Shown here in pieces: positions 3,501-31,439 of a DNA stretch of 31,439 bases. The notes beneath the pieces were generated by a model, which was not told the origin of the DNA, made no database searches, and saw only the letters and a program-made list of their open reading frames with translations. The stretch spans positions 1 through 31,439 of IMG/VR virus record IMGVR_UViG_3300021375_000106; one strand, 5' to 3'. Numbering within the stretch: position 1 is the stretch's first letter; the number at the start of each line of letters is the position of its first letter. The DNA comes from a virus. The translations under genes and the position numbers were made by a program.

Positions 3501-3507
3501 TCTAATC

Positions 3508-3523
3508 GCCCCCGAAAGGGGGC
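3508..3523 (+). terminator. GNRA-capped hairpin, possible attenuator
   Basis: GCCCCC, a GAAA tetraloop and GGGGGC form a perfect 6-bp stem directly after the stop codon at 3500. No T-run follows on either strand, so this is not a standard intrinsic terminator. It may stabilise the upstream mRNA end or act as a partial terminator. Confidence 0.5.
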
Positions 3524-3543
3524 AACTAATCAAGGGGAATACT

Positions 3544-30178: not shown

Positions 30179-30180
30179 CT

Positions 30181-30204
30181 AAAAACCCCCCTCCGAAGAG
30201 GGGG
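30181..30204 (-). terminator. Minus-facing intrinsic terminator with UUCG tetraloop
   Basis: Read on the minus strand: CCCCCTC, TTCG, GAGGGGG and then G followed by TTTTT. The C(UUCG)G loop is an unusually stable cap. On the plus strand the hairpin is preceded by A5 and followed by TAAACC, so it lacks a U-tract there. It points towards the recombination genes and would stop antisense transcription coming from the right. Confidence 0.7.
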
Positions 30205-30267
30205 TAAACCATAGGAGTGATGATCGGGGAAAACCATCACCGACAATTTAACACATAGGATGCTCAA

Positions 30268-30462
30268 ATGATAGATTTTGGTAGATGTTTAAGAGAGGCG
30301 CAAAACATGCAAGGAGTCAGTAGTTCTGATCTTGCGCGTAAGTTAGGGGTTCACAGACAGCAGGTGAACATTTGGCGTAATAAAACTAACGTAAGGCTAG
30401 ATACTGCTTTGAAAGTTTGCATGGCTTTAGGTTATGGATTAGACGAGTTTATTGCTTTATAA
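30268..30462 (+). CDS. Xre-type HTH regulator
   Basis: The product is 64 residues, one Xre/Cro-like helix-turn-helix: LREAQNMQGVSSSDLARKLG, VHRQQVNIWRNKTNVRLDTA, then LKVCMALGYGLDEFIAL. AGGA upstream of ATG 30268 is a modest ribosome binding site. It is the size of Cro-like proteins, without a separate oligomerisation or RecA-cleavage domain. A candidate binder of the CTTTACAT palindrome at 28062. A half-site CTTTACAT lies at 30485-30492, just after its stop. Confidence 0.85.
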   Translation: MIDFGRCLREAQNMQGVSSSDLARKLGVHRQQVNIWRNKTNVRLDTALKVCMALGYGLDEFIAL

Positions 30463-30484
30463 AAGAAAACCCCCTTTACGGGGG
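30460..30484 (-). terminator. Second minus-facing terminator
   Basis: On the minus strand: CCCCC, GTAAA, GGGGG then TTTTCTTTT. On the plus strand the same hairpin is followed only by CTTTACATTT, so it works better leftward, although a bidirectional role is possible. It lies at the 3' end of the Xre gene and at the end of the putative minus-strand RNA. Confidence 0.65.
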
Positions 30485-30544
30485 CTTTACATTTGCTCTG
30501 TGATGAGCAATACTGAATGTGCGGATTCAGAAAGGTTATTCTAA
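30460..30544 (-). ncRNA. Candidate structured minus-strand small RNA
   Basis: On the minus strand, TATAAT (30556-30551) is followed by an about 85-base stretch with three consecutive hairpins: CTGAAT/ATTCAG (30513-30530), TTGCTC/GAGCAA (30493-30510) and the GC-rich terminator at 30460-30484. The first two stems are perfect 6-bp with 6-base loops. The -35 region is weak (AGAAAG). The same hairpins could form in a plus transcript as the 3' UTR of the Xre gene, so strand is uncertain. Read-through of the first terminator would make an RNA antisense to the Xre gene. Confidence 0.4.
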
Positions 30545-30556
30545 CACAGTATTATA

Positions 30557-30867
30557 GTGTCTTGTAACATTCCCTTTCTTTTTTCGCGCTTTAGTTATCG
30601 GGCTAGAGGCTGGCGAATCTCTTAAATTAAACGCCAGAGCGAAGTTGACCCTCTTGACATAGCCCCGGATGCAGATCGGTTTCTGCTGATGGATAGATTA
30701 GATATTCGATACGATAACGAAAAAACCGCGAAGTCGCTTTGCCCTTTGATCGTTTATTTTACTCAGCGTAGTAAAAGGGTTAAAAGTGTCTTCAATAAAA
30801 ATATATATTCAAATACATATTTAATAACATAATCAGGCGAGGCTTGACCGAGCCATAGGAGTTTAAC
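30557..30867. other. Non-coding control region, possible origin
   Basis: There is no convincing gene in these 311 bp. They contain CTGGCG/CGCCAG (30610-30637), GCAGA/TCTGC (30671-30686), two close TTGAC boxes (30645, 30654) without matching -10 boxes, and a strongly AT-rich stretch at about 30791-30833. That stretch is followed by AGGAG and the HTH gene. The AT tract may hold a promoter for the replication genes and could serve as a melting element of an origin. This is inferred from position and composition only. Confidence 0.45.
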
Positions 30868-31089
30868 ATGACACAGATATCAAGAGTTCTACAATACTTA
30901 GAAGATGGCAAGAAACTAACCTGCCTAAATGCTTTTAATGAATTAGGCATCACTCAGGTAGCCGCTAGAATCTTTGAGCTTAAAGAGCTAGGACATCCAA
31001 TCCAGAAGAAGATGATTACAGTAACCAACCGATACGATGAAAAATGCAGTGTCGCTGAATACTATATTGGTGATAGCAATGTTGCTTAA
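30868..31089 (+). CDS. Helix-turn-helix protein, complete copy
   Basis: The product is 73 residues, with AGGAG ahead of ATG 30868. It starts MTQISRVLQYLEDGKKLTCL and continues with the winged-helix-like NAFNELGITQVAARIFELKE. This is the intact form of the gene truncated at 1-171. It is typical of phage HTH_39-like proteins found upstream of replication genes. It overlaps the next gene by 11 bp. It is probably a DNA-binding partner of the replication-like protein encoded next, or a regulator of that operon. Confidence 0.82.
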   Translation: MTQISRVLQYLEDGKKLTCLNAFNELGITQVAARIFELKELGHPIQKKMITVTNRYDEKCSVAEYYIGDSNVA

Positions 31090-31439
31090 TAACGGGGATA
31101 CCTACGAGGTAGATCAGGCAGACATTATCCAGTGGGAAAAGACTTATCCCGCAATTAATGTTTACCAAGAACTGAATGCAATGGAGTCGTGGCTTGATGC
31201 TAATCCTACGCGCAGGAAAACACCTAAAGGCATTAAGAGGTTCATCAACTCTTGGTTAGCCAGAGCGCAAGACAAAGGCGGCTCACCACAGGTTAAATCA
31301 AAAACGCACAGCATCAGGAACAGGAACATTGAAGACAGCCTAGCTGATGTGTCGTGGATTGCTAACGTAGAAGCAAAGAACAGAGCCATCAATCATTTCA
31401 TGGGTAAGTATGGTTTCTATTGGGATGGGGAGAGAAAAC
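30919..31439. repeat. Right copy of the 521-bp terminal near-repeat
   Basis: It aligns to 1-521 without gaps with 29 mismatches, nearly all beyond 31067. The end of the window therefore corresponds to base 521 of the next genome unit. Confidence 0.95.
31079..31439 (+). CDS. Replication-protein-like gene, second copy, 3'-truncated
   Basis: This is the same gene as 161-529, cut by the window end after 120 codons. Compared with the first copy, 26 bases differ but only three residues change (A to T, K to A, S to A); the rest are synonymous. The variation pattern is that of natural strain divergence in a real, selected coding sequence. The ANPTRRKTPKGIKRF motif is unchanged. Confidence 0.85.
   Translation, partial: MLLNNGDTYEVDQADIIQWEKTYPAINVYQELNAMESWLDANPTRRKTPKGIKRFINSWLARAQDKGGSPQVKSKTHSIRNRNIEDSLADVSWIANVEAKNRAINHFMGKYGFYWDGERK

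What the first reader, a model, noticed from the sequence alone, without database searches (positions are those of the whole stretch)
30181..30556. Minus-strand terminators and a hairpin-rich candidate antisense RNA in an all-plus genome
Two hairpins at 30181-30204 and 30460-30484 carry T-runs only when read leftward, one with a UUCG cap. Upstream on that strand lie two perfect hairpins and a TATAAT box. With no minus-strand protein genes, this implies a leftward RNA: a short one ending at 30460, or a read-through form fully antisense to the Xre gene. That could work as an antisense control of the regulator, in the spirit of lambda OOP or P22 sar.
Basis: partly seen in the sequence, partly recalled or inferred. 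Interest (0 to 1): 0.6.

Follow-up and report, generated by a model that had tools for sequence, protein, structure and literature searches.

The report
Paired leftward phage small RNAs
A marine phage carries two tiny RNA genes, one on each side of a regulator gene and both pointing against all of its protein genes; matching mutations in dozens of relatives show that their folded shapes are kept by selection, and one of them probably blocks the ribosome-binding site of the phage's first rightward gene.

Summary
There is not one leftward RNA reading through the Xre gene. There are two short leftward RNA genes that bracket it, each with its own extended -10 promoter and terminator. sRNA-A (~30534-30462) has three hairpins; sRNA-B (~30241-30180) has a hairpin, a single-stranded linker CUCCUAUGGUUU and a UUCG-capped terminator. 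In IMG/VR relatives the stems covary strongly (score 0.464 vs 0.149 shuffled for A, 0.537 vs 0.162 for B; 0/500 shuffles). The promoter motif TGnTAnnnT sits at a near-fixed place in 37/38 A and 48/48 B sequences. sRNA-B is in 79 of 99 loci tested, sRNA-A in about 40; neither is in Rfam. Most likely sRNA-B pairs with the Shine-Dalgarno site of the first rightward-operon gene (9 nt perfect; best of about 50 genes; p~0.014), while sRNA-A faces the rightward promoter. The RNA genes are well supported; the targets are inference, and the covariation test of the sRNA-B target was negative. A new ~190-nt structured leader lies next to them.

The parts
30180..30241 (-). sRNA-B gene: hairpin 30217-30240 (C-rich loop), single-stranded linker 30205-30216 containing the anti-Shine-Dalgarno CUCCUAUGG (30217-30209), UUCG-capped terminator 30187-30204, T-run 30185-30181
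   Evidence: Covariance model hits in 79/99 loci at E<1e-8; 540/540 cells paired, score 0.537 vs 0.162; 22 G-U vs 0 A-C, so minus strand
30245..30253 (-). Extended -10 promoter of sRNA-B, TGTTAAATT
   Evidence: TGnTAnnnT in 48/48 distinct relatives, 3-4 nt before the model start; shuffled 6.9%
30268..30462 (+). xre: 64-aa Cro/C1-type HTH protein between the two RNA genes
   Evidence: Pfam HTH_26 E=1.7e-9; 36 related loci; identical protein in 11 loci whose stems differ
30462..30534 (-). sRNA-A gene: hairpin 1 30513-30530, hairpin 2 30493-30510, terminator 30470-30485 with T-run 30469-30461; start probably near 30532
   Evidence: 98.6% of cells paired, score 0.262 vs 0.066 on an unfitted alignment; 0.464 vs 0.149 with 35 distinct sequences
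30538..30546 (-). PL, extended -10 promoter of sRNA-A, TGTTAGAAT
   Evidence: TGnTAnnnT in 37/38 distinct relatives, 3 nt before the model start in 35 of them; shuffled 5.5%
30486..30514 (+). PR, rightward promoter TTTACA-N17-AATACT inside the sRNA-A gene; hairpin 2 is its spacer
   Evidence: -35/-10 with spacing 17-18 kept in 37/38 relatives and in L006, which lost sRNA-A; consensus scan 9/12
30544..30560 (.).
   Evidence: Sequence and alignment A4: ACACTATTATAGTGT in L089, ACAGTATTTTACTGT in L088
30593..30785 (+). Structured leader of the rightward transcript
   Evidence: 40 predicted pairs, 27 with compensatory changes in 23 sequences; no Rfam match
30853..30861 (+). CCATAGGAG, Shine-Dalgarno site of the first rightward gene (HTH_39, 30868-31089); predicted target of sRNA-B
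   Evidence: Only other copy of this 9-mer in the window is in sRNA-B; duplex -20.6 vs next -14.2 kcal/mol; 14/1000 shuffles reach it

Best explanation
The region encodes two independent, intrinsically terminated small RNAs on the minus strand, one on either side of xre, each driven by an extended -10 promoter (well supported by comparative evidence; expression not shown). sRNA-B is most likely a trans-acting riboregulator: its single-stranded linker CUCCUAUGG pairs with the Shine-Dalgarno site CCAUAGGAG at the end of the structured leader and holds down translation of the first gene of the rightward operon (inferred, about 45%). sRNA-A is transcribed from a promoter that faces the rightward promoter PR, with predicted start sites only about 10 bp apart. 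Polymerases at the two promoters should therefore exclude each other, and the 5' ends of the two transcripts are complementary for about 10-15 nt, so that sRNA-A is made when PR is off and counteracts it (inferred, about 35-40%). Together with the small HTH protein this would be an early-gene control module.
For: Two promoter-plus-terminator units, none in shuffles. Strong covariation of both RNAs, also on unfitted alignments. Extended -10 at a near-fixed distance, 37/38 and 48/48. G-U asymmetry 22:0 for sRNA-B. PR kept with spacing 17-18 across relatives and after loss of sRNA-A. CCATAGGAG exactly twice in the window and in 9 of 15 related records; best duplex of about 50 gene starts, 14/1000 shuffles as good.
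Against: No expression data. No compensatory change between the sRNA-B linker and the leader SD in diverged lineages; in the L213/L214 type the perfect match sits at the ERF gene instead. Conservation of the SD (AGGAG) and of the preceding CC (hairpin) has other reasons. sRNA-A is missing in many relatives (L006, L195 type), so it is dispensable. The G-U test does not fix the strand of sRNA-A.
Confidence: 0.55

Rival explanations
1. The two RNAs are real, but their main targets are host mRNAs or host proteins, the anti-SD linker and C-rich loop of sRNA-B acting broadly on ribosome-binding sites, and the loop of sRNA-A on something unknown.
For: The linker resembles a general anti-Shine-Dalgarno sequence; no covariation with the leader SD; the loop UUCCCC is nearly invariant without a convincing phage partner.
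Against: The 9-nt perfect match at the first rightward gene and its rarity elsewhere; fixed position beside the leader.
Confidence: 0.28
2. One reading: one leftward transcript, partly read through, acts as antisense to xre.
For: Both terminators face left and flank xre.
Against: Each terminator has its own promoter and hairpin; sRNA-B occurs in phages without sRNA-A; no overlap with xre coding sequence.
Confidence: 0.07
3. The terminators only insulate xre and its neighbours from stray leftward transcription; the short RNAs have no function as molecules.
For: Terminator-like hairpins with leftward T-runs; dispensability of sRNA-A in some relatives.
Against: The non-terminator hairpins covary, the linker and loop of sRNA-B are nearly invariant, and the promoters are conserved.
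Confidence: 0.07
4. The stems are DNA elements: operators of Xre, cruciforms or origin structures.
For: Palindromes lie close to PR and PL; a phage operator can change together with its repressor.
Against: Loci with an identical Xre protein have different stem sequences; G-U pairs occur on one strand only for sRNA-B; T-tracts and -10 motifs are present.
Confidence: 0.03

Closest known systems
Phage lambda OOP RNA (77 nt, leftward from pO)
   Same: Short leftward RNA with an intrinsic terminator, next to a regulator gene and a rightward operon
   Different: OOP overlaps 52 bases of the cII coding end (PMC5869508); sRNA-A and sRNA-B do not overlap xre coding sequence; here there are two RNAs, one encoded across a rightward promoter
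Phage P22 sar RNA (68/69 nt)
   Same: Size; leftward-type small RNA proposed to block translation initiation of a phage regulatory operon (PMC12197685)
   Different: sar pairs with ant mRNA; here the predicted target is the SD of the first gene behind a structured leader, about 640 nt away; pairing untested
Phage P1/P7 c4 RNA
   Same: Small structured RNA that binds around a ribosome-binding site in trans (PMC12197685)
   Different: c4 targets ant; sequence and structure unrelated as far as tested (no Rfam match)
anti-hemB (Burkholderia RNA 7, RF02837)
   Same: Hairpin plus terminator outline; best sub-threshold Rfam match of sRNA-B (20.1 bits, E 0.041)
   Different: Far below the gathering score of 49.5; chromosomal RNA of Burkholderia; not a member

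Membership tests
Intrinsically terminated bacterial/phage sRNA gene | promoter, short structured transcript, intrinsic terminator with U-tract | tested here: met
   (sequence level)
Intrinsically terminated bacterial/phage sRNA gene | transcript detected | not testable with these tools
   No expression data available
OOP-type cis-antisense RNA | overlaps the coding sequence of the regulator on the other strand | tested here: not met
   sRNA-A ends at the xre stop codon; sRNA-B lies in the ssb-xre gap
sar/c4-type translation-blocking RNA | complementary to the ribosome-binding site of a phage regulatory or early gene | tested here: met
   9-nt perfect match at the SD of HTH_39, -20.6 kcal/mol, 14/1000 shuffles
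sar/c4-type translation-blocking RNA | pairing maintained by compensatory change between RNA and target | tested here: not met
   Cognate pairs not better than non-cognate in diverged lineages
sar/c4-type translation-blocking RNA | represses the target in cells | not testable with these tools
   Needs a reporter assay
Any Rfam 15 family | score at or above gathering threshold | tested here: not met
   0 matches in window and in 7 relatives

The most novel reading that the evidence does not exclude
A previously undescribed RNA-centred early-gene switch of marine phages. A widespread structured leader, which could be a processive antiterminator or a ligand-sensing RNA, stands in front of interchangeable first genes. 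sRNA-B controls its ribosome-binding site, and sRNA-A is encoded across the rightward promoter, so that the promoter spacer itself folds as an RNA hairpin on the other strand.
Probability: 0.25. Interest if true: 0.8.

Novelty: new variant of a known kind. Interest (0 to 1): 0.6.

Why it matters
Phage-encoded antisense and small RNAs are known mainly from a few enterobacterial model phages. Here two RNA families, absent from Rfam, are supported by covariation in a large uncultivated marine phage group, with defined promoters, ends and a testable target. The sequences also show one stretch serving at once as a rightward promoter and, on the other strand, as a three-hairpin RNA. Such genes are easily missed by protein-based phage annotation, and the control of these phages' early genes was otherwise invisible.

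Tried and rejected
Read-through RNA antisense to xre: rejected, because the left terminator has its own promoter and occurs without sRNA-A. TATAAT at 30551-30556 as sRNA-A promoter: rejected, not conserved (L088, L110); it lies in a palindrome. Stems as Xre operators: rejected, because identical Xre proteins go with different stems. A short ORF in the sRNA-B region (ATG after AGGAG, in frame with xre in the L088 type): rejected, because the frame is broken in the window, L090 and L102. Compensatory change between sRNA-B linker and leader SD: tested, not found. Prophages or hosts: the genome-contig scan gave two stretches whose surroundings do not resemble the module. Named phages: no nucleotide match for the window or for two relatives' leaders. 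Known RNA family: none. G-U strand test for sRNA-A: uninformative. PHROGs searches of about 40 window proteins gave no integrase, so lysogeny is not assumed.

Full report
OBSERVATION. A strict scan of the whole window found only five terminators. The only promoter-plus-terminator units were the two minus-strand ones at 30546-30466 and 30253-30186, with none in 40 shuffled genomes. All credible genes are on the plus strand.

RELATIVES. The Xre protein found 36 loci in IMG/VR. Their non-coding flanks kept the hairpins while stem sequences changed. A conserved motif in the downstream leader (GTTGACCCTCNNGACANAGCC) found 107 stretches. A homologous HTH gene lies upstream of the leader in most of them.

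sRNA-A (minus, about 30534-30462). It has three hairpins. On an unfitted alignment of 14 distinct sequences, 98.6% of cells pair, with covariation score 0.262 against 0.066 shuffled (0/500); slid controls are at most 0.032. A covariance model found it in distant phages. With 35 distinct sequences, 11 of 20 pairs show double changes, score 0.464 against 0.149. In 37 of 38 distinct sequences an extended -10 motif TGnTAnnnT precedes it, 3 nt away in 35 of them; shuffled expectation is 5.5%. In the window this is TGTTAGAAT, 30546-30538.

sRNA-B (minus, about 30241-30180). It has a hairpin with loop UUUUCCCC, the linker CUCCUAUGGUUU and a UUCG-capped terminator. It is found in 79 of 99 loci at E<1e-8, one per locus, and in 7 more. 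In 46 distinct sequences all 540 cells pair, 7 of 12 pairs show double changes, score 0.537 against 0.162. An unfitted alignment of the first hairpin agrees (0.558 against 0.216). G-U pairs number 22 on the minus strand against none on the plus strand, which fixes the coding strand. The extended -10 is present in 48 of 48. The fitted alignments lean towards their model, so the unfitted counts are the safer ones.

INDEPENDENCE. L006/L007 lost sRNA-A but keep sRNA-B, and the L195 type shows no sRNA-A but has sRNA-B. This speaks against one read-through transcript as the main product. Neither RNA covers xre coding sequence.

RIGHTWARD PROMOTER. Inside the sRNA-A gene lies TTTACA-17 bp-AATACT on the plus strand. 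It is kept with spacing 17-18 in 37 of 38 relatives although hairpin 2, in the spacer, changes its sequence. It is also kept in L006/L007 after loss of the RNA. Predicted start sites of the two facing promoters are about 10 bp apart, so polymerases at both should exclude each other (inference).

LEADER. Downstream, 30593-30785 folds as a plus-strand RNA with 40 predicted pairs, 27 of them with compensatory changes in 23 sequences. G-U pairs far outnumber A-C mismatches in that table, which favours the plus strand. There is no Rfam match. It stands before unrelated first genes.

TARGET OF sRNA-B. CCATAGGAG, the complement of the linker, occurs twice in the window: in the sRNA-B gene and at the Shine-Dalgarno site of the first gene behind the leader. 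In 9 of 15 related records it also occurs exactly twice. The linker-SD duplex is -20.6 kcal/mol, the next gene -14.2; 14 of 1000 shuffled linkers reach that value. Against this, diverged lineages show no compensatory change between linker and SD. In the L213/L214 type the perfect match sits at the ERF gene's SD instead. The target is therefore a lead, not a result.

VERDICT. Two new small-RNA families on the strand opposite to all protein genes: strongly supported by comparative evidence, unproven by expression. The comparison with OOP fails on anatomy (no overlap with the regulator's coding sequence; OOP overlaps 52 bases of cII, PMC5869508). Sar and c4 RNA (PMC12197685) are the better functional models for sRNA-B. 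No integrase was found, so a lysogeny switch is not assumed.

Noticed in passing
30593-30785 (+), and 107 stretches: A ~190-nt structured leader RNA on the plus strand (40 predicted pairs, 27 with compensatory changes), absent from Rfam, in front of unrelated first genes in many marine phages; function unknown, antitermination or a riboswitch-like role are guesses.
   Followed up: partly
1-521 and 30919-31439: The two ends of the contig overlap by 522 nt at 94.6% identity, as if the assembly went once round a circular or permuted genome into a strain variant.
   Followed up: partly
30835-30861: Just before the first gene's SD a short hairpin with tandem GA/GA (GGC-GA-GG..CC-GA-GCC) is kept with outer-stem changes (GGC/GCC to GGU/ACC) in relatives.
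   Followed up: no
30544-30560: Palindrome ACACAGTATTATAGTGT, perfect in L088 and L089 variants, beside PL; possible operator for Xre.
   Followed up: no
3502-3529: A third strict terminator pointing left, in a short gap between plus-strand genes, without an extended -10 nearby.
   Followed up: no
L213:2527-2535, L232:7570-7578: Where the leader SD no longer matches sRNA-B, CCATAGGAG appears as the SD of the ERF recombinase gene.
   Followed up: partly
L193, L202, L208, L235, L236: A group of phages carries the leader motif without the HTH gene or the two RNAs, with a TATAAT box just upstream of it.
   Followed up: no
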